64,000 nucleotides of DNA. It comes from Oscillospiraceae bacterium. Its GTDB lineage: Bacteria; Bacillota; Clostridia; Oscillospirales; Ruminococcaceae. Location of the stretch: positions 1 through 64,000 of the forward strand of contig JAFRJM010000019.1 of assembly GCA_017432285.1 (NCBI GenBank), given 5' to 3'. Under the pieces are notes generated by a model. That model was not told where the DNA came from. It did no database searches and worked only from the letters and a program-made list of their open reading frames with translations. Made by a program: the position numbers and the translations under genes. Positions 27,876 through 46,567 of the stretch are shown here, piece by piece. Position 1 is the stretch's first letter, and every line of letters starts with the position of its first letter.

Positions 27876-27896
27876 AATTGTTCCTTTCTTTTTAGA

Positions 27897-27973: not shown

Positions 27974-29530
27974 TTAGTCAGCAGCTCTTGCGTTGTTGCT
28001 GAGCTGGGATTTCTCTCCGCGTTCGTTCTCATATCTTGCTTCCTCGCTGTGGAGGAGGAAGTCATTGATGTCAAGCAGGCACTGAGTCTGTTTTGTGATC
28101 TCAGTTGTTGTCTTGATCTCATCGAAGAACAGCATCTGGTTCGGCTCTTCCTTGGAGTAGGTCTTCCATTCAGGCATCGGGGTGCCGTCCTGATCCAGTC
28201 CGTTGGGGTTGCCGGTCTTTGCGAAGTTTGTCCAGTAGTTGCACATCTTTCTTGCAAGATCATAATGATGGCCGTCGAATGGTCTCCAGCATTTGTTCAG
28301 GGTCTCAAAAGTGAACCAGAGCTCTGAGCTGTGGAATGCACCTGCATCGTCGCCGGGGATCGTGGGTCCGAAGGTGTAATAGTATGCCGGATGGCCTTTG
28401 TCTGCAAGAGCTTCGCACATCAGCTTCTCTGTGAGATCGAAACCAACGATCTTCTTGTTGATGTCGCCGTCGCATGCCTCACGGTATGCTTCTGCATACT
28501 CGCCGAAATTCTTCTTGAGCCACTCTTCTTCTTCGCCCGGTTTGGGAACGAGGAAGAACTCGTTGTTGGTGTTGCCGGTCATGAAGTACTCGGGGTTCAT
28601 TACGCCCTGTGCTGCCAGCTCATACCACTGAGCAGGTACGAACTCACCGTCGATTGCGGGGTTGAAGAACTGGTGGGACTCATGATACTTCTCTTCGATG
28701 AACTTCCAGGGCAGTTTGCGTGCTTCTTCGATAGTATCGCAGCCAAGCACGTCCTTTACGAAGTGAACGCCCTTTTCAAGAGCAACTTCCATCGGGTCAG
28801 CGATAGGCATGAAGCATTTCGGATATTTGGCAAGGATTCCGCCGCAGGACTGTGCGATAGCTTTCTCGAACAATCCCTTGCTCTTCGGAGAAGTGCAGTG
28901 ATACATCGTGCTGCCGCCGCCAGCGGACTGACCGTAAATGGTGATGTTGTCTGGGTCACCGCCGAAATTGGCGATATTGCGTTTGATCCATGCAAGAGCA
29001 TATGCCTGGTCGAGCAGACCATAGTTTGCCGGATGCTCTGGATCCTCTTTGACGAGGTCGGGGTGGGTGAGGAAACCGAAGCAGTTCAGACGGTATGCGA
29101 TGGAAACGAGGATGACGCCTCTGCGGTTCAGAGCTTCTCCGTCGAACTCCATCTCGTGGCAGTAGCCTTCCTGCAGGCCGCCGCCGAAGATCCATACCAT
29201 GACAGGAAGTTTCTCATCGCCTGTCTTAGCAGGTGTCCAGATGTTAAGAGCAAGGCTTCCGGCCTCGTCCATCGGGACCTCAGGATCGCAGTGCCACTCT
29301 TTTGAATAGAATGCATCAGGATTGATGCCCGGCACTTTCTGAACAGTGATAGGTGCGAACTCAAGGCAGTCGCGGACGCCTTCCCAAGGCTCTACGGGCT
29401 GCGGAGCACGCCAACGGTTCTCGCCGACAGGATCGGCTGCAAAGGGGATGCCTTTGAAAACGGTGGTGCGAACATCAGAACCCTGAATGCCGCGGACCCA
29501 GCCGCTTTCGGTTTTTGCGATACGTAGCAT
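27974..29530 (-). CDS. Type B carboxylesterase, array copy 10
   Basis: A 518-residue alpha/beta-hydrolase of the carboxylesterase type B (para-nitrobenzyl/cholinesterase) family. Triad: S202 in YGQSAGGGS, E324 in GNTNNEFF, H400 in GAFHSSELWF; oxyanion loop FGGGLQEG near 115. It has no signal peptide, so it is cytoplasmic. The N-terminal 230 residues and the C-terminal third are nearly identical to the next gene upstream (29582), while residues about 230-370, which line the acyl pocket and lid, differ. The two also share the sequence around the start and ribosome-binding site, so this is a recent tandem duplicate. Last member of the ten-gene run in transcription order. Confidence 0.93.
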   Translation of the reverse strand: MLRIAKTESGWVRGIQGSDVRTTVFKGIPFAADPVGENRWRAPQPVEPWEGVRDCLEFAPITVQKVPGINPDAFYSKEWHCDPEVPMDEAGSLALNIWTPAKTGDEKLPVMVWIFGGGLQEGYCHEMEFDGEALNRRGVILVSIAYRLNCFGFLTHPDLVKEDPEHPANYGLLDQAYALAWIKRNIANFGGDPDNITIYGQSAGGGSTMYHCTSPKSKGLFEKAIAQSCGGILAKYPKCFMPIADPMEVALEKGVHFVKDVLGCDTIEEARKLPWKFIEEKYHESHQFFNPAIDGEFVPAQWYELAAQGVMNPEYFMTGNTNNEFFLVPKPGEEEEWLKKNFGEYAEAYREACDGDINKKIVGFDLTEKLMCEALADKGHPAYYYTFGPTIPGDDAGAFHSSELWFTFETLNKCWRPFDGHHYDLARKMCNYWTNFAKTGNPNGLDQDGTPMPEWKTYSKEEPNQMLFFDEIKTTTEITKQTQCLLDINDFLLHSEEARYENERGEKSQLSNNARAAD

Positions 29531-29581
29531 ATTGTTGCCTCCATATATAATATGAATTTTGTTTTTGTTTAAATGCCCTGT

Positions 29582-31147
29582 TTACGGGTGGGCTTTGCCG
29601 TATTTTGCGTTGCTGGTCGACGTGATCGAGAAGAAAGCGTCAAGGTTTTTCGCTCTGGCTTCAGGATCATTCAGCAGATAGCGGTTGATCTCAAGCAGGC
29701 ATGCTGTCTGATCAGAGAGCTCTTTGGTCGTAGATACTTCATCCATGAAGAGCATCTGGTTCGGTTCTTCCCTGGAATAGGTCTTCCACTCTGGCATCGG
29801 AGTGCCGTCCTGATCGACTCCGTTCGGATCGCCTGTCTTGGCGAAGTTCGTCCAGTAATTGGCCATCTTTCTCGCCAGATCATAGTGATGTCCGTCGAAA
29901 GGTCTCCAGCACTTGTTCAGTGTCTCAAATACGAACCACAGATCGGAGCTGTGGAATGCACCTGCTTCGTCTCCGGGGATCGTCGGTCCGAATGTGTAGT
30001 AATAGATAGGACGTCCGATATCGGCGAGAGCCTCACATAGGAGCTTTTCAGTTAGATCGAATCCAAGCACTTTCTTATAGATGTCTCCGCCGCAAGCTTC
30101 ACGGTATTTTTCTGCGTTGTCGCCGAAGCTGTCCTTGAGCCATTTTTCAGGATCGTCACCCGGGGTGTAGATGAACTCGTTGTCGGTATTTCCGATCATC
30201 AGATATTTGGGGTTCAGCTGACCGGCCATTGCGCGCTCATACCACTGGTCAAGAACGAATTTTCCGTCGATGTTTGCTGTGAAACGAAGGTGAGATTTCT
30301 GATACTGTTCTTCTACGAATCTCCAGTCAAGTTTCCTCGCTTCTTCGATAGTGTCGACGCCTAGCCAGTCGTGCAGGAAGCGTACGCCTCTTTCCTCTGC
30401 AGTCTCCATCGGATCTGCAAGAGGGATGAAGCAGCGCGGATAGGTAGTGGGGATACCCGCTGCGGACTGTGATATTGCCTTGTCAAACAAGCCTGCGCTC
30501 TTCGGGGAAGTGCACTGGAACATCGTGCTTCCTCCGCCGGCTGACTGTCCAAATATAGTGATGTTGTCCGGATCACCGCCGAAATTGGCGATATTGCGTT
30601 TGACCCAAGCTATAGCATAGTTCTGGTCAAGCAAACCGAAGTTTGTCGGGTTTTCGGGGTCCTCTTTTGTCAGATCAGGGTGGGCAAGGAAGCCGAATAC
30701 ATTGAGACGATAGGGGATGGAAACGAGAATGACGCCTTTGCGGTTCATGGCTTCACCGTCGAACTCCATTTCGTGGCAATAGCCTTCCTGGAATCCGCCG
30801 CCAAAGATCCAAATCATGACGGGAAGTTTCTCGTCGCCTGTCTTGGCAGGTGTCCAGATATTGAGGGCCAGGCTTCCTGCTTCATCCATAGGAACTTCAG
30901 GGTCGCAGTGCCACTCTTTTGAATAGAAAGCATCAGGATTGATTCCTGGAACCTTCTGAACAGTGATAGGAGCGAACTCAATGCAGTCGCGGACCCCTTC
31001 CCAGGGTTCTACAGGCTGCGGTGCTCGCCAGCGATTCTCACCGACAGGATCGGCAGCAAAGGGAATGCCTCTGAAAACGGTGGTGCGGACATCAGAACCC
31101 TGAATGCCGCGGACCCAGCCGCTTTCGGTTTTCGCAACACGTAACAT
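29582..31147 (-). CDS. Type B carboxylesterase, array copy 9
   Basis: 521 residues, with triad S202 (FGQSAGGGS), E324 (GNTDNEF) and H399 (GAFHSSDLWF). Its closest relative is the neighbour at 27974. The fold-defining WRPFDGHHYDLARKM segment after the His is shared with all array members. The last 30 residues carry a Ser/Asn-rich tail ending in KYGKAHP that its twin lacks. Cytoplasmic by absence of a signal sequence. Separated from copy 8 by 47 bases with no terminator. Confidence 0.93.
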   Translation of the reverse strand: MLRVAKTESGWVRGIQGSDVRTTVFRGIPFAADPVGENRWRAPQPVEPWEGVRDCIEFAPITVQKVPGINPDAFYSKEWHCDPEVPMDEAGSLALNIWTPAKTGDEKLPVMIWIFGGGFQEGYCHEMEFDGEAMNRKGVILVSIPYRLNVFGFLAHPDLTKEDPENPTNFGLLDQNYAIAWVKRNIANFGGDPDNITIFGQSAGGGSTMFQCTSPKSAGLFDKAISQSAAGIPTTYPRCFIPLADPMETAEERGVRFLHDWLGVDTIEEARKLDWRFVEEQYQKSHLRFTANIDGKFVLDQWYERAMAGQLNPKYLMIGNTDNEFIYTPGDDPEKWLKDSFGDNAEKYREACGGDIYKKVLGFDLTEKLLCEALADIGRPIYYYTFGPTIPGDEAGAFHSSDLWFVFETLNKCWRPFDGHHYDLARKMANYWTNFAKTGDPNGVDQDGTPMPEWKTYSREEPNQMLFMDEVSTTKELSDQTACLLEINRYLLNDPEARAKNLDAFFSITSTSNAKYGKAHP

Positions 31148-31194
31148 ATTGTTGCCTCCGTAATTATTAAATTAATAAAGCTTGGACACAGGGA

Positions 31195-32757
31195 TCATTT
31201 CTTGTTAATGTCTACCAGGAATCTGTCTCTCTCACTCGGGCCATCATCCATATAGACTTCGTCGTAGAAGCGCATGGAGCAGGGATTCTCGGTGGTGTAC
31301 GGTGTCCAGGTGGGCATCGGTGTGCCGTCTTTGTCCAGACCATTGGGATCGCCGTACTTCGCGAAGTTGGTCCAGTAGTTGCACATCTTTCTGGCGAGAT
31401 CGAAATGGTGACCGTCAAAAGGCCTCCAGCATTTCATCAGGGTCTCGAACTCGAACCACAGGTCGCTGGAATGGAACGCACCGGCATCGTCTCCGGGGAT
31501 CGTCGGTCCGAATACGTATGTATAGAACTTGCGTCCCTGTTTTGCCACTGCCTCGTCGAACACTTCGTTGCCAAGCCACATCTGGCTGACGGAAGCGTTC
31601 ATGTAGTAATCGCCGGGCATGCTCTTGACAAGCTGACGATATTCTTCTGCGTGCGGTCCGAAGGTCTTGTCGATCCAGCGGTCCACTTTGGTGACTTCGT
31701 CCAATTCTTCCTCTTCACCGTTGTCAGTGACCTGCCCGAAAGCAAACATCTTCATGGTCTTGGCGTCTCCGTCCGGCTCCAGCAGGAACTCGTCCTTGGT
31801 GTTGCCGATCATGAATGTGTCGACATGGATATCGCCATCGAGGATAGCCTGATCGTTGGGCTTCACGACGATTTTGCCGTCAATGCAGGAGCCAAGTCTT
31901 AAAGGCAGTTCGTTGAAACGCTCAGAAAGGTCCTTCGCATCCAGGGCTCTCGCTTCCGCCAGCGTGCTGACACCGAGTGCTTTGAATACTTCCACACCAA
32001 GCTGTTCCTGCTCCGCAAGTGAACGTGTCAGTCTGGGAATAGGACGGCTGGGATAATCGAAGCCCATACCGCCGATGGATTCAATGATGCCTTTCTGGAA
32101 GAGACCCTTGGTCTTGGGGGACATCATTTGTGTCAGCGTGCTTCCGCCGCCTGCGGACTGCCCGAAGACTGTGATGTTCTCCGGATCGCCTCCGAAATTG
32201 GCGATGTTGCGTTTGACCCACGCGATACCTGCTGCCTGATCCTGATAGCAGAAGTTCGCCGGAGCTTCCGGGTTTTCTGCTGTGATCTCAGGGTGGGCGA
32301 GCAGTCCGAATACGTTAACACGGTAACCGATAGAGACAAGGATAACGCCGCGCGAGGCGATGCGCTCACCGTCGAACTCCATCTCATGGGGATAGCCTTC
32401 CTGCAGGCCGCCGCCGAAGATCCATACCATTACGGGAAGTTTTTCGTCCGTGGATTTGGCAGGCGTCCAGATGTTGGCTCTCAGGCAATCCTCGCCCATG
32501 GGGACTGCCGGGTCAACGTGCCACTCTTTGGAATAGAATTTTTCGGGGTCTTTGCCGGGAATGCGCTGCATGGGGATCGGTCCGAATTCGGAGCAGTCAC
32601 GGACGCCTTCCCAATCCTTGGCGGGCTGTGGAGGACGCCAGCGGTTCTCACCGGCTGTGGTATCTGCAAAAGGAATGCCTTTGTAAACGGTGATCCGCGC
32701 GTCTGTGCCTACTACACCGCGGACGCGGCCGTTCTCAGTTCTGGTTTCTCTAAGCAT
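31195..32757 (-). CDS. Type B carboxylesterase, array copy 8
   Basis: 520 residues when started at ATG 32757 behind GGAGGC; the in-frame ATG at 32799 overlaps the upstream gene and adds an unrelated leader. Triad S201 (FGQSAGGGS), E323 (GNTKDEF), H429 (GAFHSSDLWF). It belongs to the subgroup with copies 6 and 7 (RITVYKGIPFADTTAGENRW near residue 21) but has about 20 extra, acidic residues between the Glu and His regions (DNGEEEELDEVTK), probably a surface loop. Ends in a short KK tail. Confidence 0.92.
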   Translation of the reverse strand: MLRETRTENGRVRGVVGTDARITVYKGIPFADTTAGENRWRPPQPAKDWEGVRDCSEFGPIPMQRIPGKDPEKFYSKEWHVDPAVPMGEDCLRANIWTPAKSTDEKLPVMVWIFGGGLQEGYPHEMEFDGERIASRGVILVSIGYRVNVFGLLAHPEITAENPEAPANFCYQDQAAGIAWVKRNIANFGGDPENITVFGQSAGGGSTLTQMMSPKTKGLFQKGIIESIGGMGFDYPSRPIPRLTRSLAEQEQLGVEVFKALGVSTLAEARALDAKDLSERFNELPLRLGSCIDGKIVVKPNDQAILDGDIHVDTFMIGNTKDEFLLEPDGDAKTMKMFAFGQVTDNGEEEELDEVTKVDRWIDKTFGPHAEEYRQLVKSMPGDYYMNASVSQMWLGNEVFDEAVAKQGRKFYTYVFGPTIPGDDAGAFHSSDLWFEFETLMKCWRPFDGHHFDLARKMCNYWTNFAKYGDPNGLDKDGTPMPTWTPYTTENPCSMRFYDEVYMDDGPSERDRFLVDINKK

Positions 32758-32785
32758 AAAAATGCCTCCGTTTATGTTTTTTGAA

Positions 32786-34312
32786 TTAAAGAAGTCCAAG
32801 ATTTTTAAGGTTGATATTTACGACTGCCTGGATGACCGGATCTTCCTTCTCAAGAGGATAGATCTCATCGCCGAGGAAGAGGATGTTTCTTTCTTCGTTA
32901 TATTTTTTCCACTCAGGCATATCTGTTCCGTCAGCATCCTTGCCGTTCGGGTTGCCTGTGCGGGCGAAGTTTGCGAAGTAGTTGCACATCTTTCTGGCAA
33001 GATCATAGTGGTGGCCGTCGAACGGTCTCCAGCAGTTGCGGATGTTGTCGAACTCGAACCAGAGGTCGCTGGAGTGGAATGAACCTGCATCATCGCCCGG
33101 GATCTCAGGATCGAAGATCTCGAAGTATGTGTCTTTTCCGGCGTGGAGCAGAAGCTCTGCGCTCAGGAGGTTTGCAGCATGGAAGGATGAGAATGTGGCA
33201 GCTTTCTTGAGCGCTTCCGGATCATCGCTTCCAGCCTTCTCGCGTACAGCGGCCATGAATTCATCAGCATATTTGCCAAATGATTCATTTACCCACTGAT
33301 CGAGATCGCCTCTCGGACCTGTCGGGAATTCATCACCGGTAACCGTTAGCATGATGTCGATATCATTCATGTCGCCGTCAAGCATAGCCTGATTAGGATC
33401 CTTTACGCAGAACACGTTGTCTACCAGCGGGAACATGAATTTGAAGGTCTCGGCGCGGTACTGTACCTGTTTGTCGGAGACATATCTCGCATCGAGTGCT
33501 CTTGCTTCTTCGATCGTCTTTACACCGAGGTAATCCAGGAATTCCTGTCCGAAAGCTTCACCATAGGCAAGGTCCTTGGTTCCGATTCCGAAGAATTTGC
33601 TCTCAGGAAGTGCAAGGGCACCGAAACCGGGGGACTGGAAGATAGCACGCTGGAACAGCCCTTTGGCAAGAGGAGATGCTGAAAGATATTCAGAGGCATG
33701 TCCGCCGCCGGACTGGCCGAAGATAGTTACGTTATCAGGATCTCCGCCGAAGTTGGCAATGTTGTTCTTTATCCACTTCAGGGCTGCGATGCAGTCGAGG
33801 AGTCCATAGTTTGCAGGATCGCCTGGCTGAGCTTCTGTGATCTCTTTATGAGCCATGAATGCGAAAACGTTAAGACGGTATGTGATCGACACAAGAACGA
33901 TGCCGCGTTTTGCGAACTGCTCTCCGTCGAACTCCATCTCATGGCCGTATCCTTCCTGCATTCCGCCGCCATGGATCCACATCATGACAGGCATCTTCTC
34001 GTCGCCGGTCTTTGCGGTAGTCCACACGTTCAGATAGAGGCAGTCTTCGTCCATTGAGATCTCCGGATCGACGTGCCATTCCTTTGAATAGAAAGCATTC
34101 GGATCGAGACCGGGTGTGGTCTGCATTGCGATCGGACCGTACTCATAGCAGTCACGGATGCCTTCCCAGTTGGCTGCAGGCTGGGGAGCGCGCCAGCGGA
34201 GCTCTCCTACAGGAGGTGCAGCATAGGGGATTCCCTTGAATACTGTTACACGGGCATTGGTTCCGGCAAAGCCGCGGACCATTCCGTTTTCAGTCTTTGT
34301 TACTCGAAGCAT
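32786..34312 (-). CDS. Type B carboxylesterase, array copy 7
   Basis: 508 residues. Triad S201 in FGQSGGGHAS (Gly instead of Ala after the nucleophile), E328 in VTGDEFP and H413 in GSFHSSDLWF. It forms a second subgroup with the gene at 38936, sharing WIHGGGMQEGYGHE in the oxyanion loop instead of the WIFGGG form, and a KQVQYRAETFKFM pocket segment. The start is 14 bases after the stop of copy 6. No signal peptide. Confidence 0.92.
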   Translation of the reverse strand: MLRVTKTENGMVRGFAGTNARVTVFKGIPYAAPPVGELRWRAPQPAANWEGIRDCYEYGPIAMQTTPGLDPNAFYSKEWHVDPEISMDEDCLYLNVWTTAKTGDEKMPVMMWIHGGGMQEGYGHEMEFDGEQFAKRGIVLVSITYRLNVFAFMAHKEITEAQPGDPANYGLLDCIAALKWIKNNIANFGGDPDNVTIFGQSGGGHASEYLSASPLAKGLFQRAIFQSPGFGALALPESKFFGIGTKDLAYGEAFGQEFLDYLGVKTIEEARALDARYVSDKQVQYRAETFKFMFPLVDNVFCVKDPNQAMLDGDMNDIDIMLTVTGDEFPTGPRGDLDQWVNESFGKYADEFMAAVREKAGSDDPEALKKAATFSSFHAANLLSAELLLHAGKDTYFEIFDPEIPGDDAGSFHSSDLWFEFDNIRNCWRPFDGHHYDLARKMCNYFANFARTGNPNGKDADGTDMPEWKKYNEERNILFLGDEIYPLEKEDPVIQAVVNINLKNLGLL

Positions 34313-34326
34313 TATATTTCCTCCAA

Positions 34327-35841
34327 TTACGGTTTATTGACTCTGAGTAAGAATTTGCGTTTTTCTGTGTAGGGGCTGTGATCCATAACGATCTCGTCAC
34401 CGAAGAAGATATTGCATCTGTCTTCATCTGTGAATGCATCCCAGTGGAGCATCGGTGTGCCGTCTTTATCAAGTCCGTTAGGATCACCGGTCTTTACGAA
34501 GTTGGCCCAGTAGTTTGCCATCTTTCTGGAAAGATCGAAGTGGTGCCCGTCAAACGGTCTCCAGCATTTCAGAAGGTTCTCGCTCATGAACCACAGATCA
34601 CTTGAGTGGAATGCACCGGCATCGTCTCCGGGGATAGTGGGTCCGAAGATGTAATAATGTACATCGCGTCCCTGTTTTGCGAACTCTTCAAGTGCAAGCT
34701 GTGAGCCAAGCTCAAATGTGCCGACTGTAGCTACTTTGCGGAGAGATTCACCGGACTCTGCTGCCATCTTGCGGCAGATATCGAGATATTCGTCTGCGTT
34801 TTCACCGAAGCTGTCTTTTGCCCATGCTTCGATCTCTGCTTCGTCATCGGATCTCGGTCCGTTCATGAACTCATTTGTGGTATTGCCGATAAGGATCGGG
34901 ATGCGGGGCAGTTCATCATTCACGATAGCTTCATTCTGGCTCTTGGGAAGGAACTTGCCGTCTACCATCGGTCCGAACATGTATCCGGACTCAAGGCATT
35001 TCTCTTCGATGAACCATGCATCGAGCTTCCTTGCTTCAGCAATAGTATCTACGCCGAGGACCTCTTTCAGGAACTTTGCGCCATACTGCTGAGCATCTTC
35101 AAAAGTGAAGGAGCGGAATCCGAGAATCGACTTCGGATATCTGAATCCGAGTCCGCCAGCGGACTGGATGATAACTTTCTGATAAAGGTGTCTGCTGCCG
35201 GGGGAGGTGAGGTGGTTCCATACGCTTCCGCCGCCTGCTGACTGACCGCCGATAGTGATGTTCTGGGGATCCCCGCCAAAATTGGCGATATTCCTTACGA
35301 TCCACTCAAGACCTGCTCTCTGGTCGAGCATACCAAAGTTAGTAGGAGCTTCCGGTGCTTCTGCTGTGAGTTCGGGATGGCAGAGGAATCCGAATACGTT
35401 TACACGGTATGCTACGGAGACATAGATGATTCCGCGGCTAGCGAGACGCTCGCCGTCGAATTCCATCTCGTGGGCATAACCTTCTTTGAAGGCACCGCCG
35501 AAGAACCATACGAATACCGGGAGCTTCTCATCTGTGCTCTTCGCAGGAGTCCAGATGTTAAGCCTCAGGCTGTCTTCGCCCATAGGTACTTCAGGGTCAA
35601 CATGCCACTCTTTTGAATAGAATGCATCAGGGTTTTTGCCGGGGATCGCCTGCATAGTGATAGGCCCGAACTCAGAGCACTCGCGGACACCTTCCCAGGG
35701 TTCTGCGGGCTGAGGAGCACGCCAGCGGTTATCACCGCATGTCGGTGCTGCATAGGGAATGCCTTTGTATGCAGTGATCCTTGCATCTGTTCCGACAACT
35801 CCGCGTACGCGTCCGTTCTCGGTAATAGTTTCACGCAACAT
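34327..35841 (-). CDS. Type B carboxylesterase, array copy 6
   Basis: 504 residues; triad S201 (IGGQSAGGGS), E324 (GNTTNEF) and H412 (GAFHSSDLWF). The oxyanion segment reads WFFGGAFKEGY, with Ala at a position that is Gly in the others, which may change the pocket. Shares MLRETITENGRVRGVVGTDAR with the gene at 35863, then diverges. Cytoplasmic. Confidence 0.92.
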   Translation of the reverse strand: MLRETITENGRVRGVVGTDARITAYKGIPYAAPTCGDNRWRAPQPAEPWEGVRECSEFGPITMQAIPGKNPDAFYSKEWHVDPEVPMGEDSLRLNIWTPAKSTDEKLPVFVWFFGGAFKEGYAHEMEFDGERLASRGIIYVSVAYRVNVFGFLCHPELTAEAPEAPTNFGMLDQRAGLEWIVRNIANFGGDPQNITIGGQSAGGGSVWNHLTSPGSRHLYQKVIIQSAGGLGFRYPKSILGFRSFTFEDAQQYGAKFLKEVLGVDTIAEARKLDAWFIEEKCLESGYMFGPMVDGKFLPKSQNEAIVNDELPRIPILIGNTTNEFMNGPRSDDEAEIEAWAKDSFGENADEYLDICRKMAAESGESLRKVATVGTFELGSQLALEEFAKQGRDVHYYIFGPTIPGDDAGAFHSSDLWFMSENLLKCWRPFDGHHFDLSRKMANYWANFVKTGDPNGLDKDGTPMLHWDAFTDEDRCNIFFGDEIVMDHSPYTEKRKFLLRVNKP

Positions 35842-35862
35842 AGAATAGCCTCCGTTTATAAA

Positions 35863-37371
35863 TTATTTTGTTACTTTTTCAATATTCAGATCGAGCAGGA
35901 ACTGATCCTTCTCGCTTGACGGATCTTTTTCGACTGAGATCTCGTCATAGAATCGGATGGAATATGGGGTCTCCGTAGTGTATGCCGGCCAGGTCGGCAT
36001 CGGTGTGCCGTCCTTGTCCAGACCGTTGGGATCGCCTGTTTTTGCAAAGTTAGTCCAGTAATTGCACATCTTGCGGGAGAGATCGAAATGATGTCCGTCA
36101 AGAGGTCTCCAGCATTTCATAAGAGTCTCAAACTGGAACCACAGGTCACAGGAGTGGAATGCTCCGGCATCATCACCGGGGATAGTCGGGCCAAAGACGT
36201 AGCTGAAGAATTTCCGGCCCTGTTCGGCTGCAAAGTGATACATCATCTGGTTTCCGAGCCACATCTGATGTACTGTGGCATTTTCGCGGTAATCACCCGG
36301 CATAGCTTTCACTATGGCGCGGTACTCATCCGCTTTGTCACCGAATTCCTTATCAATATATGCATCAACAGATGCGTCATCGTTTCCCGGTATCTCGACC
36401 AGGAACTCGTCCTTTGTGTTGCCTATCATGAAAGCATCAGCATGATAGTCACCGTCGATGACAGACTGGTCGAGTGTTTTTGTCAGGAATTTACCGTCGA
36501 TGGTAGCGCCCCAGAATGTATAGCTCTCATTGAATTTGGTCTCGATATACTGGGCATCCAGTTTTCTGGCTTCAGCAAGGTTGCTGACACCGAGTTTCTT
36601 GAAGAACTCCACACCGCGCTGTTCCATTGTTTCCAGACTGTCCTGAGGCATTCCATGGACGGTGGGAACAACAGGGTTCATTCCGCCGATAGACTCGATA
36701 ATGCCTTTCTGGAAGAGGCCTACGGTCTTTGGGGAGCACATCTGTGCAAGAATGCTCATTCCGCCTGCTGATTGTCCAAAGATAGTGATGTTTTCCGGAT
36801 CACCGCCGAAATGGGAAATGTTCCTCTTTACCCATGCGATACCGAAAGCCTGGTCCTGGAAAGCAAAGTTCGCAGGTGCTTCAGGGCTTTCTGCAGTGAT
36901 CTCCGGATGGCATAACAGTCCGAACACATTTACGCGGTATCCGATAGAGACGAGAATGACACCGCGTGAAGCGATACGCTCACCGTCAAATTCCATCTCC
37001 TGGGGATAGCCCTGTTGCAGGCCGCCGCCGAAGATCCATACCATTACGGGCAGTTTCTCGTCTGTGGATTTGGCAGGTGTCCAGATATTAGCTCTGAGGC
37101 AGTCTTCGCCCATTGGAATGTCGGGATCCACATGCCACTCTTTAGCGTAGAATCCGCCATGGCTTATACCGGGGGTACGCTGGATCGGGATAGGGCCGAA
37201 TTCAGAGCAGTCTCTTGTCCCTTCCCAGTCCTTTGCGGGCTGGGGAGGGCGCCAGCGGTTCTCGCCGGCTGTGGTGTCTGCAAAAGGAATACCTTTATAT
37301 ACTGTTATTCTTGCATCTGTTCCGACAACGCCGCGAACACGGCCGTTTTCGGTAATGGTCTCGCGCAGCAT
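35863..37371 (-). CDS. Type B carboxylesterase, array copy 5
   Basis: 502 residues; triad S201 (FGQSAGGMS), E322 (GNTKDEF), H406 (GAFHSCDLWF). It is the near twin of the next gene upstream (37391): same length and few substitutions along the whole protein, including the variable middle region, so this is the most recent duplication in the array. Differences include FYAKEWH versus FYSKEWH and LDGHH versus FDGHH. Confidence 0.93.
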   Translation of the reverse strand: MLRETITENGRVRGVVGTDARITVYKGIPFADTTAGENRWRPPQPAKDWEGTRDCSEFGPIPIQRTPGISHGGFYAKEWHVDPDIPMGEDCLRANIWTPAKSTDEKLPVMVWIFGGGLQQGYPQEMEFDGERIASRGVILVSIGYRVNVFGLLCHPEITAESPEAPANFAFQDQAFGIAWVKRNISHFGGDPENITIFGQSAGGMSILAQMCSPKTVGLFQKGIIESIGGMNPVVPTVHGMPQDSLETMEQRGVEFFKKLGVSNLAEARKLDAQYIETKFNESYTFWGATIDGKFLTKTLDQSVIDGDYHADAFMIGNTKDEFLVEIPGNDDASVDAYIDKEFGDKADEYRAIVKAMPGDYRENATVHQMWLGNQMMYHFAAEQGRKFFSYVFGPTIPGDDAGAFHSCDLWFQFETLMKCWRPLDGHHFDLSRKMCNYWTNFAKTGDPNGLDKDGTPMPTWPAYTTETPYSIRFYDEISVEKDPSSEKDQFLLDLNIEKVTK

Positions 37372-37390
37372 GGAAATTATCTCCTTAATA

Positions 37391-38899
37391 TTAGCCAGTA
37401 ACTTTGTTTATGTTCAGATTGAGCAGGAACTGATCCTTCTCGCTTGACGGATCCTTTTCCATGAAGATCTCATCATAGAAACGGATTGAGCACGGGGCCT
37501 CCTCTGTATAAGGAGTCCATGTCGGCATCGGTGTGCCGTCCTTGTCGTTTCCGTTAGGATCGCCTGTCTTAGCAAAGTTTGTCCAGTAGTTGCACATCTT
37601 GCGGGAGAGATCGAAATGATGTCCGTCAAACGGTCTCCAGCATTTCATGAGTGTCTCGAACTGGAACCACAGGTCGCAGGAATGGAATGATCCTGCATCG
37701 TCTCCGGGGATAGTCGGTCCGAAGACATAGCTGTAGAATTTGCGTCCCTGTTTCGCAGCAAAGTGATACATCATCTGGTTTCCAAGCCACATCTGATGGA
37801 CTGTGGCATTTGTGCGGTAGTCACCGGGCATGGCTTTCACTATGGCGCGGTACTCATCCGCTTTGTCACCGAATTCCTTATCTATATATGCATCAACTGC
37901 TGCATCGTCATCACCGGGGATGTTTACCACGAACTCGTCCTTGGTATTGCCGATCATGAAGGCATCTGCATGATAATCGCCGTCGATGACTGACTGGTCA
38001 AGAGTCTTTGTCAGGAACTTGCCATCGATGGTGGCACCCCAGAAGTTATAGCCTTCATTGAATTTGTCTTCGATGTACTGTGCGTCAAGTTTTCTGGCTT
38101 CAGCAAGGCTGCTGACACCGAGCTTCTTGAAGAATTCGACACCGCGCTGCTCCATAGTCTCCAGTGTATCCTGAGGCATACCCATTACTGTAGGGACAAC
38201 AGGGTTCATTCCGCCGATGGATTCAATGATACCTTTCTGGAACAGGCCCTTTGTTTTGGGAGAGCACATCTGCGCCAGAACGCTCATGCCGCCTGCAGAC
38301 TGTCCGAAGATCGTGATGTTCTCCGGGTCTCCGCCGAAGTTAGCGATATTTCTCTTTACCCATGCGATACCTGCAGCCTGATCCTGGAATGCGAAGTTGG
38401 CGGGTGCTTCAGGGTTCTCAGCTGTGATCTCAGGGTGGCAGAGCAATCCGAATACATTTACACGGTATCCGATAGAGACAAGCACTACTCCTCTGGAGGC
38501 GATGCGCTCGCCGTCAAATTCCATCTCGTGAGGGTAGCCTTCCTGCAGTCCGCCGCCGAAGATCCATACCATTACGGGCAGTTTCTCATCTGCGGATTTG
38601 GCAGGTGTCCATACGTTGGCTCTGAGGCTGTCTTCGCCCATGGGGACTTCCGGATCCACATGCCATTCTTTTGAGTAGAAAGCATTGGGGTCTCTTCCCG
38701 GAACACGCTGCATTGAGATAGGACCGAATTCGGAGCAGTCCCTTACACCTTCCCAGTCCTTAGCGGGCTGCGGAGGACGCCAACGGTTCTCGCCGGCTGT
38801 AGTGTCTGCGAAGGGGATGCCTTTGTAAACAGTGATCCTTGCGTCTGTAGCCACTACACCGCGAACACGTCCGTTCTCAGTAAAAGTTTCTCTTAACAT
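37391..38899 (-). CDS. Type B carboxylesterase, array copy 4
   Basis: 502 residues; triad S201 (FGQSAGGMS), E322 (GNTKDEF), H406 (GSFHSCDLWF). Twin of the gene at 35863. The shared pocket segment (NPVVPTVxGMPQD, NFWGATIDGKFLTK) is unlike that of any other copy, which suggests the pair prefers one substrate type. No signal sequence. Confidence 0.93.
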   Translation of the reverse strand: MLRETFTENGRVRGVVATDARITVYKGIPFADTTAGENRWRPPQPAKDWEGVRDCSEFGPISMQRVPGRDPNAFYSKEWHVDPEVPMGEDSLRANVWTPAKSADEKLPVMVWIFGGGLQEGYPHEMEFDGERIASRGVVLVSIGYRVNVFGLLCHPEITAENPEAPANFAFQDQAAGIAWVKRNIANFGGDPENITIFGQSAGGMSVLAQMCSPKTKGLFQKGIIESIGGMNPVVPTVMGMPQDTLETMEQRGVEFFKKLGVSSLAEARKLDAQYIEDKFNEGYNFWGATIDGKFLTKTLDQSVIDGDYHADAFMIGNTKDEFVVNIPGDDDAAVDAYIDKEFGDKADEYRAIVKAMPGDYRTNATVHQMWLGNQMMYHFAAKQGRKFYSYVFGPTIPGDDAGSFHSCDLWFQFETLMKCWRPFDGHHFDLSRKMCNYWTNFAKTGDPNGNDKDGTPMPTWTPYTEEAPCSIRFYDEIFMEKDPSSEKDQFLLNLNINKVTG

Positions 38900-38935
38900 G
38901 ATCGTTTCTCCTGTTCTATTTGCTGTATATATTTG

Positions 38936-40459
38936 TTATTTCAGACCGTAGTATTTAAGGTTCGCATCCAAAACGTAGCGAATGACCGGATCCATGTATT
39001 CTTCCTGTTTGACTTCATCGCCAAATTCGATTGCGCGTCCGGTCTCTATATAAGGTCTCCACTCAGGCATTGGTGTGCCGTCCGCATCATTGCCGTTCGG
39101 GTTGCCGGTGCGTGCGAAGTTAGAGAAGTAGTTGCACATCTTTCTTGCAAGGTCATAGTGGTGTCCGTCGAACGGCCTCCAGCATGCCGCCAGAGTCTCA
39201 AAAGCGAACCACAGATCGCAGGAGTGGAATGCGCCGACTCCGTCTCCCGGGATATACGGGTCAAACAGGCTGAAATAGACCTTATGGCCGTACTTGGTCA
39301 GGATCTCTGCGGTAAGCCTGTTGGATGCGTGCATGGATGAGAAGTTTGCTGCACGGAGCAGATCCTCTCTGCTGTCGTTCCCGGCTTTATATTTTGAGAC
39401 TTTGATATAGCCGTCTGCATAATCGCCGAATTCTCTCTTTGCCCATTCCTCGAAAGGCTCTCTCGGATCGACAGGGAACTCATCGCGTGTGCAGGTAACC
39501 ATGACGTCCACATCGTTGACCTCATTGGCTGCCAGTGCGCGGCCGGGTCCTTTTACACAGAATATCCCGTCTACGAGACCGGTCATGAATTTGAAGGTCT
39601 CTGCGCGGAACTTGACCTGTTTGTCGTTGATATAGTCTGCGTCCAGTTTTCTGGCTTCCTCGATGCTGCTGACTCCGAGATAATCAAGGAATGCCTTACC
39701 GAGCTCTTCTCCGTAAGCCAGATCATGTGTCTCGGTATCGAAAACACCTTTCGGGATGCGGGAAGCGTTGAACCCCGAAGACATTGTGATCGCTCTCCTG
39801 CAGAGACCGACAGTCATAGGGGAGGTGATGAGGAAAAGGGTAGCGTCAGCACCGCCGGACTGTCCGAAGATGGTGACATTGTCCGGATCGCCGCCGAAGT
39901 TGGCGATATTCCTCTTGATCCACTTCATTGCAGCTACGCAGTCGAGAAGGCCGAAGTTGCATGGATCGCCGGGCTGTGCTTCCGTCAGACCTTTGTGTGC
40001 CATGAAGGCAAACACATTCAGACGGTATGTAATTGAGACAAGAACTATTCCGCGTTTTGCGAAGTTCTCTCCGTTGAATTCCTGTTCGTGGCCATAGCCT
40101 TCCTGCATTCCGCCTCCGTGGATCCACATCATGACGGGAAGCTTCTCGTCGGTGGAATTTGCAGGGGTCCAGACGTTCAGGTAAAGGCAGTCCTCACTCA
40201 TGGGGATCTCCGGATCCACATGCCATTCTTTTGAATAGAAAGCGTTGGGGTCGGTTCCGGGTCTGTTCTGCATTGCTATCGGGCCGTAATCATAACATTC
40301 ACGTACGCCATCCCAGTTTGCAGCGGGCTGGGGAGCACGCCAGCGGAGATCTCCTACAGGCGGTGCGGCATACGGGATTCCTTTATAAACAGTGATACGT
40401 GCATTGACTCCCGCGACACCGCGGACACGTCCGTTCTCTGTAAAAGTCTCACGCAGCAT
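38936..40459 (-). CDS. Type B carboxylesterase, array copy 3
   Basis: 507 residues; triad S201 (FGQSGGADAT), E327 (CTRDEFP), H412 (GAFHSCDLWF). Subgroup partner of copy 7 with WIHGGGMQEGYGHE. It lies directly downstream of a 99-base spacer with a hairpin, the largest gap in the array, so it may head a second transcript. Confidence 0.92.
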   Translation of the reverse strand: MLRETFTENGRVRGVAGVNARITVYKGIPYAAPPVGDLRWRAPQPAANWDGVRECYDYGPIAMQNRPGTDPNAFYSKEWHVDPEIPMSEDCLYLNVWTPANSTDEKLPVMMWIHGGGMQEGYGHEQEFNGENFAKRGIVLVSITYRLNVFAFMAHKGLTEAQPGDPCNFGLLDCVAAMKWIKRNIANFGGDPDNVTIFGQSGGADATLFLITSPMTVGLCRRAITMSSGFNASRIPKGVFDTETHDLAYGEELGKAFLDYLGVSSIEEARKLDADYINDKQVKFRAETFKFMTGLVDGIFCVKGPGRALAANEVNDVDVMVTCTRDEFPVDPREPFEEWAKREFGDYADGYIKVSKYKAGNDSREDLLRAANFSSMHASNRLTAEILTKYGHKVYFSLFDPYIPGDGVGAFHSCDLWFAFETLAACWRPFDGHHYDLARKMCNYFSNFARTGNPNGNDADGTPMPEWRPYIETGRAIEFGDEVKQEEYMDPVIRYVLDANLKYYGLK

Positions 40460-40520
40460 GACATATTCTCCTTGTTATTTTTTGTTGATGTTTCAATACT
40501 TCTTGTATGAAAAGTTGCCA

Positions 40521-40549
40521 ATAGCGGCTGATATGGAACCAGCCGCTAT
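40521..40549 (-). terminator. Hairpin inside the esterase array
   Basis: 9-bp perfect arms (40521-40529 and 40541-40549) just after the stop of the gene at 40559, followed on the minus strand by a weak T-containing tail (AACTTTTC). It is the only hairpin in the intergenic spacers from 27974 to 43663 that I could find and may attenuate distal genes. Confidence 0.55.
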
Positions 40550-40558
40550 CTGTTCGTT

Positions 40559-42097
40559 TTAAAGGTTTGCTTTGATTAGAAGTTCTGTCTTGGGATCGAC
40601 AGGATCATGTTTGACATAGAGCTCATCGACAAATTCAATCTGGCAGGGATCTGCTTCAGTGTAAGGATCCCACTCCGGCATCGGCGTGCCGTCCTTGTCA
40701 TTTCCGTTAGGATCGCCTGTCTTTGCAAAGTTGGTCCAGTAGTTGCACATCTTTCTTGCGAGGTCAAAGTGATGGCCATCAAAAGGTCTCCAGCATTTCA
40801 TGAGAGTCTCAAATTCGAACCAGAGGTCGCAGGAATGGAATGCGCCTGCGTTGTCACCCGGGATGGTCGGGCCGAAATGATACAGATATGTCTTCTGTCC
40901 GGCTTTTTCTCTCTGACGCGCAAGTACATAGAGGCTGAAGCAGCTGATGAACACTGTTGCCTCATGAGCAACGGTTGTTCCTTTCTCTGCTGCAGCTTTG
41001 CGGCAAACATCAAGATATTCGTCAGCGTACTCACCGAATTCGCTGCGGATCCATGCTTCTGTCTCTTCATCTGATGCGAATGCATCCGGAGGAGCCATAG
41101 GATGCTTCTGACCGGGGCCTCTGTAGAATCCCTCATTGGTGTTGTAACCCGTCATGATCGGGATCGGAAGCATACGTCCTTCACGTGCTGTTACCGTATA
41201 GTCTTCTGTTACATAATTGCCGTCGTCAACGACACGGAGCCAGAGATTGGACTCGAGGAATTTATCTTCAATGTATTTTGCATCGAGTTTTCTTGCTTCA
41301 GCGAGTGAGTTCACGCCGAGTGACTTGAAGAATTCCACGCCGATCTTTTCAGCTTCTTCAAGGGTGCCTACGCCGCCCATAAATGATTTAGGATATTTCG
41401 TGCCGGTTCCGCCGAATGACTGCGGGATAGCTTTCTGGAACAGGCCTTTATTCTGCGGAGCTGCGAGGTGGTGCATAACTGCCACACCGCCGGCAGACTG
41501 GCCAAATACTGTGATGTTCTCAGGGTCACCGCCGAAGTTGGCGATGTTTCTTTTTACCCATTCGATACCGAAACGCTGGTCAAGAAGTCCGTAGTTAGCT
41601 GGCTGATCGGGATTCTCTGCTGTGATTTCGGGGTGGCAGAGGAAGCCGAAGCAGTTGAGACGGTAACCGAGGGAAACGAGGATGACGCCTCTGGATGCGA
41701 AGCGCTCGCCGTCAAACTCCTGCTCATGTGGATATCCTTCGCGGAATCCGCCGCCGAAGATCCATACCATTACAGGGAGCTTGTCCTCAGTTGTTTTGGC
41801 AGGTGTCCAGATGTTGGCCCTGAGGCTGTCCTCGCCCATGGGAACTTCCGGATCCACGTGCCACTCTTTTGCATAGAATGCCTCAGGATCTTTTCCGGGG
41901 ATGTCCTGCATGGAGATCGGTCCGAATTCGGAGCAGTCTCTCACACCTTCCCAGTCCTTTGCGGGCTGCGGGGGACGCCAGCGGTTCTCGCCGGACGTAT
42001 CGGCTGCAAATGGAATGCCTTTGTAGACTGTGATGCGCGCATCGGTTCCTACGACACCGCGTACGCGGCCGTTCTCAGTTCTGGTTTCTCTTAGCAT
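40559..42097 (-). CDS. Type B carboxylesterase, array copy 2
   Basis: 512 residues; triad S201 (FGQSAGGVA), E322 (GYNTNEGF), H421 (GAFHSCDLWF). The glutamate motif is NEGF, the form seen in many para-nitrobenzyl esterases, and an inserted QKHPMAPPDAFASDEE segment follows it. N-terminal 200 residues track copies 4, 5 and 8. Starts 18 bases after copy 1. Confidence 0.92.
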   Translation of the reverse strand: MLRETRTENGRVRGVVGTDARITVYKGIPFAADTSGENRWRPPQPAKDWEGVRDCSEFGPISMQDIPGKDPEAFYAKEWHVDPEVPMGEDSLRANIWTPAKTTEDKLPVMVWIFGGGFREGYPHEQEFDGERFASRGVILVSLGYRLNCFGFLCHPEITAENPDQPANYGLLDQRFGIEWVKRNIANFGGDPENITVFGQSAGGVAVMHHLAAPQNKGLFQKAIPQSFGGTGTKYPKSFMGGVGTLEEAEKIGVEFFKSLGVNSLAEARKLDAKYIEDKFLESNLWLRVVDDGNYVTEDYTVTAREGRMLPIPIMTGYNTNEGFYRGPGQKHPMAPPDAFASDEETEAWIRSEFGEYADEYLDVCRKAAAEKGTTVAHEATVFISCFSLYVLARQREKAGQKTYLYHFGPTIPGDNAGAFHSCDLWFEFETLMKCWRPFDGHHFDLARKMCNYWTNFAKTGDPNGNDKDGTPMPEWDPYTEADPCQIEFVDELYVKHDPVDPKTELLIKANL

Positions 42098-42115
42098 ATT
42101 AATATCCTTCTTTCC

Positions 42116-43663
42116 TTAGTCTTTATTGAAATAAGGGTCATAGTTGATCTTAACGATGAATTCTGTAACTTCATCCGGACCAGACTCGGATAGAGCGACT
42201 TCATCGAAGAAGTTCATGTTGCGGTGTCCGTCCTTGTATTCAGGCCAGTAGGGGAGATCTGTTCCATCGTTGTCTTTTCCGTTGGGGTTGCCGGTCTTAA
42301 TGAAGTTGCTCCAGTAGTTGCACATCTTGCGGGCAACATCATAGTGATGTCCATCAAATGGTCTCCAGCTGTTGGCGAGGGTCTCGAATGAGAACCACAG
42401 GTCGCTTGAGTGGAATGAACCCGCATCGTCACCGGGCATCGTCGGGTTAAACTCATAGGTGTACACAGGTCTGCCCTGAGCCTCGAACAGTTTTCCGATC
42501 ATATAGTTCGAAGTTCTGTTGATGTTGATCATAGCAGCTTTGCGCACTGCCTCAACATCGGTGGTTCCAGCTTGTTTTATAGCTGTATCGATGTATTCTT
42601 TTCCGTGGCCGTTCAGCTTTTTGTCGCCCCATTCGACCATCTCTTCAAGGGTATCTCCCTCCGGATAGAAATTGACCTCGTCTGAAGTGTATCCGGTGAG
42701 GAAGGGGACTCTGTGAGTCTCATCGTTGATAAGATAATCTGTAGGATCCTTGGGCAGGAACTTGCCGTCCACACACTGTACGAAGCGATGGAAGGTCTTT
42801 TCCATATATTCGACGAACTTGTCGCGGATGAAGAATGCATCCAGTTTGCGTGCTTCTGCGATAGTATCGCACCCAAGATACTCTTTCAGGAAAGCGGCAC
42901 CCTGTTTTTCACACGATTCAAGAGAACGGTAAGGCCCGAAGAAGCAGGGAGGATATACTGCCGGGAAGCAGCCCCCTGAACTGGACTGAACGGTAGCTCT
43001 CTGGAACAGGCCTTCTGTTGTAGGAGATGCCATCATTGCCATTACCTGCAGGCCGCCTGCAGACTGGCCACCTATAGTGATGTTTTCCGGGTCGCCGCCG
43101 AAATTGGCTATATTTCGTTTGATCCATTCAAGTCCGGCTTTCACATCAAGATAACCGAAGTTAGCAGGAGCATCAGGCTGGTCTCTTGTAAGGTCCGGGT
43201 GAGCTAAGAATCCGAACACGTTGACACGGTATGCGATGGATACGACAACTATGCCTCTGGAAGCCATGTGTTCACCGTCAAACTCCATCTCATGTGAATA
43301 ACCTTCTGTAAGACCGCCGCCGAATATCCACGCATAAACCGGCAGTTTGTCATCGGTGCTGTTTGCGGGTGTCCAGATATTGAGTGCAAGGCTGTCTTCG
43401 CTCATGGCGATCTCAGGCTCTACATGCCACTCCTTTGAATAGAAGGCATCACGATCCTCACCGGGTGTCTTCTGCATGGTGATGGGCGGAAATACATAGC
43501 AGTCCCTTACACCTTCCCACGGCTCTACCGGCTGTGGTGCGCGCCAGCGGTTTTCACCGGATGTGTCAGCTGCGAAAGGGATGCCTTTATACACTGTGAT
43601 TCTTGCGTTGTTGCCGGCTACTCCGCGAACGAGACCGGACTCAGTTTTTGTCATTCTAAGCAT
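42116..43663 (-). CDS. Type B carboxylesterase, array copy 1 (promoter-proximal)
   Basis: 515 residues; triad S201 (IGGQSAGGLQ), E329 (GYTSDEV), H418 (GSFHSSDLWF). First gene of the run, behind an AGGAGGG ribosome-binding site and a good -35/-10 pair. It is the most divergent array copy in the pocket region (SSSGGCFPAVYPPCFFGPY). No signal peptide. Divergent from the MFS transporter gene, with operator-like sites between them. Confidence 0.92.
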   Translation of the reverse strand: MLRMTKTESGLVRGVAGNNARITVYKGIPFAADTSGENRWRAPQPVEPWEGVRDCYVFPPITMQKTPGEDRDAFYSKEWHVEPEIAMSEDSLALNIWTPANSTDDKLPVYAWIFGGGLTEGYSHEMEFDGEHMASRGIVVVSIAYRVNVFGFLAHPDLTRDQPDAPANFGYLDVKAGLEWIKRNIANFGGDPENITIGGQSAGGLQVMAMMASPTTEGLFQRATVQSSSGGCFPAVYPPCFFGPYRSLESCEKQGAAFLKEYLGCDTIAEARKLDAFFIRDKFVEYMEKTFHRFVQCVDGKFLPKDPTDYLINDETHRVPFLTGYTSDEVNFYPEGDTLEEMVEWGDKKLNGHGKEYIDTAIKQAGTTDVEAVRKAAMININRTSNYMIGKLFEAQGRPVYTYEFNPTMPGDDAGSFHSSDLWFSFETLANSWRPFDGHHYDVARKMCNYWSNFIKTGNPNGKDNDGTDLPYWPEYKDGHRNMNFFDEVALSESGPDEVTEFIVKINYDPYFNKD

Positions 43664-43818: not shown

Positions 43819-43907
43819 AAATGTATGGAAATATGTACGCAACAGGGTTTACAATCCGCAAGGGTATCAGTTATCATTGTAAAGTAGGCCAGAAGGGAGG
43901 TAGCGCT

Positions 43908-46395: not shown

Positions 46396-46419
46396 GGTGC
46401 AGCTCCTTTCGTTTTTTTC

Positions 46420-46449
46420 AGTATATACACCAACAGACAAAATGTACAA
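46420..46449 (-). promoter_or_regulatory. araR promoter
   Basis: On the minus strand TTGTAC (46444-46449) and TATACT (46420-46425) are spaced by 18 bases. The -35 box is part of an operator palindrome, so the repressor should block its own transcription. Confidence 0.6.
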
Positions 46450-46464
46450 CATTATTTTGTACAA
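46442..46464. promoter_or_regulatory. Pair of AraR-like operators at araR
   Basis: ATGTACAA at 46442-46449 (one mismatch) and an exact TTGTACAA at 46457-46464, centres 15 bases apart. They overlap and abut the -35 box of araR. Confidence 0.65.
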
Positions 46465-46510
46465 ATTTTTGCTGATTAGTGCGAAAGGGTGTGTTTTTGG
46501 CTCAAAAAAT

Positions 46511-46567
46511 GCCATGTTAAGTACAGTTAACATGCCTTAATAAGCCATGTTAAGTGCGGTTAACATT
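46511..46567. repeat. Tandem pair of a second operator-like palindrome
   Basis: CATGTTAA-N6-TTAACATG at 46513-46534 (perfect) is repeated at 46546-46567 with one mismatch in the right arm. Both copies share the leading GC and lie exactly 33 bases apart, about three helical turns. The sequence is unlike the TTGTACAA box and unlike the 14-base catabolite-response element, so another regulator is likely. Confidence 0.6.

What the first reader, a model, noticed from the sequence alone, without database searches (positions are those of the whole stretch)
27974..43663. Ten tandem type B carboxylesterase genes in one run
Ten consecutive same-strand genes, each about 500-520 codons, encode members of one carboxylesterase subfamily. 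All have an intact Ser (about 201), Glu (about 322-331) and His (about 399-429) triad, and spacers mostly are 14-51 bases. I know of no described locus with so many adjacent type B carboxylesterases in a bacterium. All share a family-specific block (Y-[SA]-K-E-W-H near residue 77 and W-R-P-[FL]-D-G-H-H after the His), so the expansion occurred within this lineage. Conserved triads in every copy argue for selection, not decay.
Basis: partly seen in the sequence, partly recalled or inferred. Interest (0 to 1): 0.88.

Follow-up and report, generated by a model that had tools for sequence, protein, structure and literature searches.

The report
Ten-gene esterase array, genus-wide esterase expansion
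Ten side-by-side genes for ester-cutting enzymes are real, and they are the tip of a much larger build-up of two families of such enzymes in a group of gut bacteria known here only from assembled genomes, which probably uses ester-decorated plant molecules that it takes into the cell.

Summary
In detail: ten co-directional PF00135 (type B carboxylesterase) genes at 27974-43663, all with intact Ser/Glu/His triads, 47-90% identical. An eleventh PF00135 gene and two PF00756 esterases lie close by. It is not misassembly: an independent roe-deer MAG has nine such genes in nearly the same order, ending in the same two PF00756 genes, and three related MAGs carry 7-8-gene arrays. It is not a local oddity: the window's own 2.13-Mb genome holds 41 full-length PF00135 genes (12 on one other contig) and 35 PF00756 matches. 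PF00756 is high in 4 of 4 genus genomes tested (24-35, against 0-2 in 8 controls); GH43 and GDSL are not. Most array paralogues have separate orthologues in sister species and evolve under purifying selection; none of the ten has an export signal. In five related MAGs the sister array follows a sugar-type ABC ATPase and aldose epimerase, and the epimerase-esterase pairing recurs in three diverged loci. Best reading: a cytosolic esterase battery stripping acyl groups from imported plant compounds, probably acylated sugars. Substrates are untested.

The parts
42116..43663 (-). array gene A, PF00135 carboxylesterase, 515 aa, first of the array
40559..42097 (-). array gene B, PF00135, 512 aa; groups with G002 C29:41494
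40460..40558 (-). B-C spacer (99 nt) with a 13-bp-stem hairpin (z -4.9)
38936..40459 (-). array gene C, PF00135, 507 aa
37391..38899 (-). array gene D, PF00135, 502 aa; AlphaFold2 model pLDDT 95.1, pTM 0.94
35863..37371 (-). array gene E, PF00135, 502 aa; 90% identical to D (closest pair of the ten)
34327..35841 (-). array gene F, PF00135, 504 aa; groups with a gene of the G002 array (C5:119196)
32786..34312 (-). array gene G, PF00135, 508 aa
31195..32757 (-). array gene H, PF00135, 520 aa (start moved from TTG 32799 to ATG 32757); groups with G002 C7:100818
29582..31147 (-). array gene I, PF00135, 521 aa; pair with J
27974..29530 (-). array gene J, PF00135, 518 aa, last of the ten
27150..27875 (-). 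PF00756 esterase a, 241 aa, GVSTG; relatives lie beside PF00135 genes in 4 other MAGs
26315..27163 (-). PF00756 esterase b, 282 aa, GCSMG; relatives lie beside PF00135 genes in 4 other MAGs
43821..45110 (+). MFS transporter, divergent from the array
45262..46533 (-). GntR-type regulator; weak match to a periplasmic-binding (LacI-like) sugar domain, below cut-off
46744..48333 (+). eleventh PF00135 esterase, divergent, GQSGG; first ATG at codon 17
48402..52027 (+). ribose/arabinose/xylose-type ABC importer: binding lipoprotein 48402-49367, permease 49491-50462, ATPase 50498-52027
52078..56277 (+). aldose 1-epimerase (52078-53136), L-arabinose isomerase (53181-54647), FGGY sugar kinase (54718-56277)
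56361..57239 (+). PF00756 protein with Ala at the place of the nucleophile (GYAMG)

Best explanation
The array is one block of a large cytosolic esterase repertoire in a genus of Clostridia whose identified members come from ruminant guts. Shown: 41 full-length PF00135 esterases and 35 PF00756 matches in a 2.1-Mb genome, intact triads in every full-length PF00135 copy examined, no export signal in all but one of them, paralogues mostly older than the species and under purifying selection, and a conserved catalytic core with a divergent middle part (residues 201-380). Inferred: that middle part shapes the substrate site (recalled for this fold, not measured); the cell imports ester-decorated plant compounds, most likely acetylated, feruloylated or coumaroylated sugars and small oligosaccharides, through pentose/ribose-type ABC importers and MFS carriers; each paralogue strips a different acyl or leaving group; the freed sugar goes to epimerase, isomerase and kinase. 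Also inferred: A to J and the two PF00756 genes form one transcript.
For: Copy number: 41 full-length PF00135 genes in G000. All 9 genus genomes have 17-29 matches with at most 20 candidates scored each, against 0-5 in 28 other family genomes. PF00756: 35, 29, 25, 24 matches in G000, G002, G003, G007 against 0-2 in 8 family controls. MFS: 38, 26, 21, 23 against 1-16. Not raised: GH43 3-5 against 0-6; GDSL 3-6 against 1-13. Triads: Ser and His in 114 of 114 aligned proteins, Glu in 91, Asp in 23. Cytosolic: 112 of 113 lack a hydrophobic N-terminus. Selection: dN/dS 0.011-0.110 in 18 usable orthologue pairs. Divergence is highest at residues 201-260, 281-380 and after 460. Sugar link: ATPase (92-100% identical, some cut by locus ends) and aldose epimerase (85-100%) precede the sister array on its strand in five MAGs: RGIG5635, RGIG2315, RGIG7575, RGIG8248, RUG11783; the permease is seen in three, the others being cut. 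In three diverged loci (L047, L052, L060; epimerase 47-51% identical) an epimerase ends 27-33 bases before an esterase. In the window importer, epimerase, AraA and kinase lie beyond the eleventh esterase. Precedent: cytosolic feruloyl/coumaroyl esterase XuaH in an arabinoxylodextrin import operon (PMC11127375, passages).
Against: Genome-wide, CUT2 permease operons are not significantly close to PF00135 genes (p 0.09-0.41 over two genomes and three distances). MFS proximity is weak (best p 0.038 in G000, 0.099 in G002). PF00756/PF00135 proximity is significant in G000 (p 6e-4) but not in G002 (p 0.64). Most neighbours of PF00135 genes in G000 are varied: of 100 scanned, 4 sugar-binding proteins, 4 MFS, 5 PF00756. 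The five importer-array operons are orthologous, so they are not independent. In the window itself the importer is divergent from the array. Three PF00135 proteins (A, J and the eleventh) match no curated functional model above cut-off. No substrate was tested.
Confidence: 0.55

Rival explanations
1. Detoxification: the cytosolic esterases disarm ester-type plant secondary metabolites (or feed xenobiotics) that enter the cell; the MFS carriers export products.
For: MFS genes are raised in number and one lies beside the array; the 25 NCBIfam models shown for it include many multidrug types, all below cut-off. Most neighbours of PF00135 genes are not sugar genes. Solved relatives include cholinesterases, liver carboxylesterases and a fumonisin esterase.
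Against: Esterases share co-directional runs with a sugar-type importer and aldose epimerase in five MAGs, and with an epimerase in three diverged loci. Parallel growth of PF00756, the family that includes feruloyl esterases, fits plant-wall esters better.
Confidence: 0.18
2. Broad scavenging of small esters as carbon and acid sources (acetyl, methyl, phenolic and choline-type esters) with no special link to sugars; the importer linkage is incidental.
For: No genome-wide proximity to CUT2 importers. GH43 is not raised. The invariant W79 of the array lies in the sequence region where cholinesterases carry their choline-site Trp (that role is recalled; profile alignment with 6emi, register uncertain by about two residues).
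Against: Importer, epimerase and esterases lie together with short spacers in five MAGs, and epimerase with esterase in three diverged loci.
Confidence: 0.18
3. Neutral or dosage-driven tandem amplification: many copies with the same activity.
For: D/E are 90% identical and adjacent; arrays differ in make-up between species.
Against: All other pairs are 47-77% identical, most have separate orthologues in other species, dN/dS is low, triads are intact in all full-length copies aligned, and the middle part diverges.
Confidence: 0.07
4. Assembly or binning artefact.
For: The genome is a fragmented assembly (46 contigs, 54.6% complete).
Against: Nearly collinear array with the same two PF00756 genes in an independent roe-deer MAG; 7-8-gene arrays in sheep, goat and buffalo MAGs; copies too different to be collapsed repeats.
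Confidence: 0.01

Closest known systems
Type B carboxylesterases (PF00135) of solved structure: p-nitrobenzyl esterase (1qe3), thermostable carboxylesterase Est50 (2ogt), fumonisin B1 esterase (8s6d)
   Same: Same family by sequence profile, GxSxG and matching Glu and His, similar length.
   Different: The best single-protein match is 188 bits, so specificity cannot be carried over; copy number in the hosts of these enzymes was not examined here.
Xua system of Ruminiclostridium cellulolyticum (PMC11127375, abstract and passages)
   Same: ABC importer with cytosolic esterases that remove acyl groups from imported sugars.
   Different: Two esterases, XuaH (A85-esteraseD-FGH, a subset of CE1) and XuaJ (CE20), with four intracellular glycoside hydrolases; here eight to ten PF00135 enzymes and no glycoside hydrolase inside the array.
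Candidatus Solibacter usitatus Ellin6076 type B carboxylesterase paralogues (PMC3174227, passages; genome size from the listing)
   Same: A reported bacterial multiplication of type B carboxylesterases (a table passage gives 9).
   Different: 9 in a 9.9-Mb soil genome; here 41 in 2.1 Mb.
[not shown]
   Same: A bacterial lineage-specific expansion with tandem arrays of up to nine paralogues.
   Different: Binding proteins, not enzymes; reported for one strain, with smaller expansions elsewhere.

Membership tests
Type B carboxylesterase (Pfam PF00135) | Profile score above the curated cut-off | tested here: met
   All ten over the cut-off in the whole-genome search; A and J also by hmmscan
Type B carboxylesterase (Pfam PF00135) | Ser-Glu-His triad with GxSxG and oxyanion glycines | tested here: met
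   10 of 10; in 114 aligned proteins Ser, His and both glycines 114, Glu 91, Asp 23
Type B carboxylesterase (Pfam PF00135) | Esterase activity | not testable with these tools
   No assay possible
Named equivalogs of NCBIfam | Score above the curated cut-off of any functional model | tested here: not met
   Best about 42 bits against a cut-off of 350 (LipP1); A, J and the eleventh gene tested
PF00756 esterases (the Pfam family of CE1-type feruloyl esterases), the two flanking genes | PF00756 score above cut-off and GxSxG | tested here: met
   32.4 and 56.5 bits, cut-off 22; GVSTG and GCSMG
CE1-type feruloyl esterases, the two flanking genes | Feruloyl esterase activity or a curated feruloyl model above cut-off | tested here: inconclusive
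   No NCBIfam model above cut-off; activity not testable
Xua-like acyl-sugar import and degradation operon | ABC sugar importer in the same operon as cytosolic esterases | tested here: inconclusive
   Co-directional and tightly spaced in five related MAGs; in the window the importer is divergent, beyond an MFS gene and a regulator; no transcript data
Xua-like acyl-sugar import and degradation operon | Intracellular glycoside hydrolases in the operon | tested here: not met
   None within the array; a GH36 gene lies after the G002 array behind a DUF554 gene

The most novel reading that the evidence does not exclude
An undescribed ecological type: a genus of small-genome gut anaerobes specialised on ester bonds rather than glycosidic bonds. 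It has multiplied two cytosolic esterase families (and carriers) to some 70-75 genes, each array member tuned to a different acyl ornament, so that it harvests the decorated fragments other fibre degraders leave behind. Genomes of a second family of the order (G116, G142, G170) show a weaker parallel of the same double expansion.
Probability: 0.4. Interest if true: 0.75.

Novelty: new variant of a known kind. Interest (0 to 1): 0.6.

Why it matters
If true, removing acyl groups from plant-derived compounds in the gut of grazing animals is a niche of its own, held by a genus with about forty PF00135 enzymes on one scaffold. That gives a natural panel for mapping esterase specificity and candidate enzymes for lignocellulose and feed use. 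It also makes a testable statement about who consumes acetylated and feruloylated sugar fragments.

Tried and rejected
Misassembly: made very unlikely by independent assemblies. Simple recent tandem duplication: not borne out by the tree. General growth of all ester hydrolases or of one hemicellulase family: not seen in the GDSL and GH43 counts; other glycoside hydrolases were not counted. PF20434 counts (50, 48, 45, 36 against 0-4) mostly re-find PF00135 genes and were not used. Genome-wide proximity to CUT2 importers: not significant. MFS proximity: weak. Promoter-like sites over 26000-45500 are no more frequent than in shuffles (18 against 18.7). The B-C hairpin pattern recurs in no other fetched locus: the two hits, L008 and L026, are copies of this place. 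The structure model of D is very good, but its fold could not be searched and no coordinates were given, so pocket geometry was not measured. NG86 dN/dS is rough because dS exceeds 1 in every pair; 3 of 24 pairs gave no dS and were dropped; paralogue pairs gave D/E 0.058, I/J 0.131, C/G 0.146. A first dN/dS script stopped after three pairs and was rewritten. In the tree, hits under 100 bits or under 400 aa were dropped; G003 is represented by 28 rows because not all its loci were fetched, G007 by 6 rows of its array only. One intended outgroup (L031) gave no ORF, so a single outgroup was used.
Full report
Ten PF00135 genes stand in one direction at 27974-43663. A and F to J have a GGAGG ribosome-binding site, C to E AGGAG, B a weaker AGAAGG. 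Protein identity among the ten is 47-90%. Ser, Glu and His of the triad are invariant; the Glu and His positions agree with the profile alignment to carboxylesterase 2ogt (the catalytic role of its residues is recalled). Gene H very likely starts at ATG 32757, not at the TTG listed by the ORF scan. The AlphaFold2 model of D, made from an alignment of 50 window and locus proteins, has mean pLDDT 95.1 and pTM 0.94.

The surroundings widen the finding. Two PF00756 esterases follow J (27150-27875 and 26315-27163). On the other side come an MFS carrier, a GntR-type regulator, an eleventh PF00135 gene and then, on the plus strand, a ribose/arabinose/xylose-type ABC importer (its ATPase scores below the cut-off of each single-sugar model), an aldose 1-epimerase, an L-arabinose isomerase (above its curated cut-off) and an FGGY kinase.

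The array is not an assembly error. A roe-deer jejunum MAG (L038) has nine PF00135 genes from its contig start: A (cut by the contig end), B, a gene split in two pieces (best matches D and E), C, D, F, G, H, J. They are followed by two PF00756 genes, 64% and 79% identical to the window's. The order is that of the window, with an extra split gene after B and without E and I. Sheep (G002 = RGIG5635) and goat (G003 = RGIG2315) MAGs have eight PF00135 genes in a row, and a buffalo MAG (G007 = RGIG7575) has seven before its contig ends (genomes identified by matching contig lengths). UBA1771 has eight in one 15-kb stretch (L054). Only these three of the nine genus genomes were matched to named records; the window's own source is not known.

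The whole genome shows that the array is one block among many. G000 (2.13 Mb, 46 contigs, 54.6% complete) has 41 full-length PF00135 genes, 12 of them on contig C28 in short runs. G002 has 38, two of them identical and probably an assembly duplicate. Among 61 relatives, all 9 genus genomes have 17-29 matches with at most 20 candidates scored; the 28 other genomes of the family have 0-5. In 295 genomes of the order the highest first-look counts besides G000's own 47 are 26, 20 and 18, all in one other family; in 398 genomes of the phylum the next highest is 12 (first-look counts are upper bounds, only the best 3 or 4 candidates were scored, and 141 and 286 genomes without a match were not listed).

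A second esterase family grew with it. PF00756 gives 35, 29, 25 and 24 matches in G000, G002, G003 and G007 (33, 27, 25 and 23 over the family's cut-off), against 0-2 in 8 genomes of the family. In G000 they form clusters of up to six matches, the largest of weak matches. The three genomes of the other PF00135-rich family have 13-15 PF00756 matches, seven of their relatives 0-7. MFS matches are 38, 26, 21 and 23 against 1-16 (33 and 22 genes in G000 and G002 after pieces were merged by hand). GH43 (3-5 against 0-6) and GDSL hydrolases (3-6 against 1-13) are not raised. Matches can be pieces of one gene, so counts of matches are approximate.

History and selection. In a tree of 113 PF00135 proteins from four genus genomes plus one outgroup (quick method, LG+G4), the ten fall in one supported group of 37 that also holds most members of the sister arrays. 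B, H and I/J group with G002/G003 genes outside the sister array, F and C/G with genes inside it, A only weakly. So most paralogues predate these species and were regrouped. Pairwise dN/dS is 0.058 for D/E, 0.131 for I/J and 0.146 for C/G, and for orthologues 0.045-0.110 (window against G002, 5 pairs), 0.026-0.061 (window against L038, 6 usable of 8) and 0.011-0.067 (G002 against G003, 7 usable of 8) (dS is above 1 in every pair, so these are rough). In ten orthologue groups the blocks around the catalytic residues are conserved, while residues 201-260, 281-380 and the C-terminus vary most.

How it may work. None of the ten has an export signal, and 112 of 113 collected PF00135 proteins lack a hydrophobic N-terminus (a simple hydropathy test). 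The substrates must therefore come in. In G002 a CUT2-type permease, ATPase and aldose epimerase precede the array, the epimerase ending 39 bases before the first esterase. The same ATPase and epimerase precede the arrays of G003, G007, RGIG8248 and RUG11783 (92-95% and 85-96% identical to those of G002), and the permease those of G007 and RGIG8248; in the other two it lies beyond the fetched stretch or the contig. These five are orthologous. More telling, in three diverged loci an epimerase only 47-51% identical ends 27-33 bases before an esterase (L047, L052, L060), and L052 also has permease and ATPase (44% and 59%) just before its esterases. The two PF00756 genes occur beside a J-type esterase in the window and L038, beside J- and B-type esterases in RGIG5635 and RGIG2315, and beside a PF00135 gene of untested type in RGIG7575. 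The closest worked example is the Xua operon of Ruminiclostridium cellulolyticum, where cytosolic esterases are believed to strip acyl groups from imported arabinoxylo-oligosaccharides (PMC11127375, abstract and passages). I therefore favour cytosolic deacylation of imported acylated sugars, at slightly better than even odds. Against it stand the weak genome-wide proximity tests (G002's length was taken as 2.3 Mb and permease pairs were merged by hand) and the varied neighbours of PF00135 genes (100 neighbours scanned in G000: 5 PF00756, 4 MFS, 4 sugar-binding proteins, no glycoside hydrolase among the 25 of 107 families shown).

Novelty. The enzyme families are known. A genus-wide double expansion of esterases with eight- to ten-gene arrays was not found in the open-access library: six searches aimed at it, two at the mechanism and one at a MAG name, with only the top 12-15 papers seen of the longer lists; most subscription journals are missing. 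Candidatus Solibacter (9 type B carboxylesterases, 9.9 Mb; PMC3174227, passages) is the nearest reported expansion seen. A 2025 paper notes type B carboxylesterase homologues often in human gut Lachnospiraceae and Bacteroidaceae (PMC12547972, passages); no array was mentioned in those passages.

Noticed in passing
56361-57239 (+): PF00756 protein in the sugar gene cluster with Ala at the place of the catalytic Ser (GYAMG): possibly a non-enzymatic relative.
   Followed up: no
L038 2951-4441: The third array gene of the roe-deer MAG is split into two frames (pieces of 774 and 699 bases): a decayed copy or a sequencing error.
   Followed up: no
40460-40558 (-): Strong hairpin (13-bp stem, z -4.9) in the B-C spacer, the longest spacer of the array; could be an RNA processing or attenuation site. 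Its pattern was not found elsewhere in the fetched loci.
   Followed up: partly
58870-63837 (-): A second ABC importer (two PF02653 permeases; ATPase; lipoprotein binding protein). The binding protein reads like the BMP/nucleoside type (recalled resemblance; no NCBIfam match at 1e-30).
   Followed up: no
20240-22614 (-): YjjI-family glycyl radical enzyme (above its cut-off) with a radical SAM gene beside it, of unknown function.
   Followed up: no
G116, G142, G170 (family f7 of the order): Weaker double expansion of PF00135 (first-look counts 18, 20, 26) and PF00756 (15, 14, 13 matches) in a second family.
   Followed up: partly
G000 contigs C44, C36, C30: Clusters of four, four and six PF00756 matches (the six are weak), a second kind of esterase array in the same genome.
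   Followed up: partly
G002 C10 and C15 (L144, L145): Identical esterase genes on two contigs: probably an assembly duplicate, so the G002 count is one too high.
   Followed up: partly
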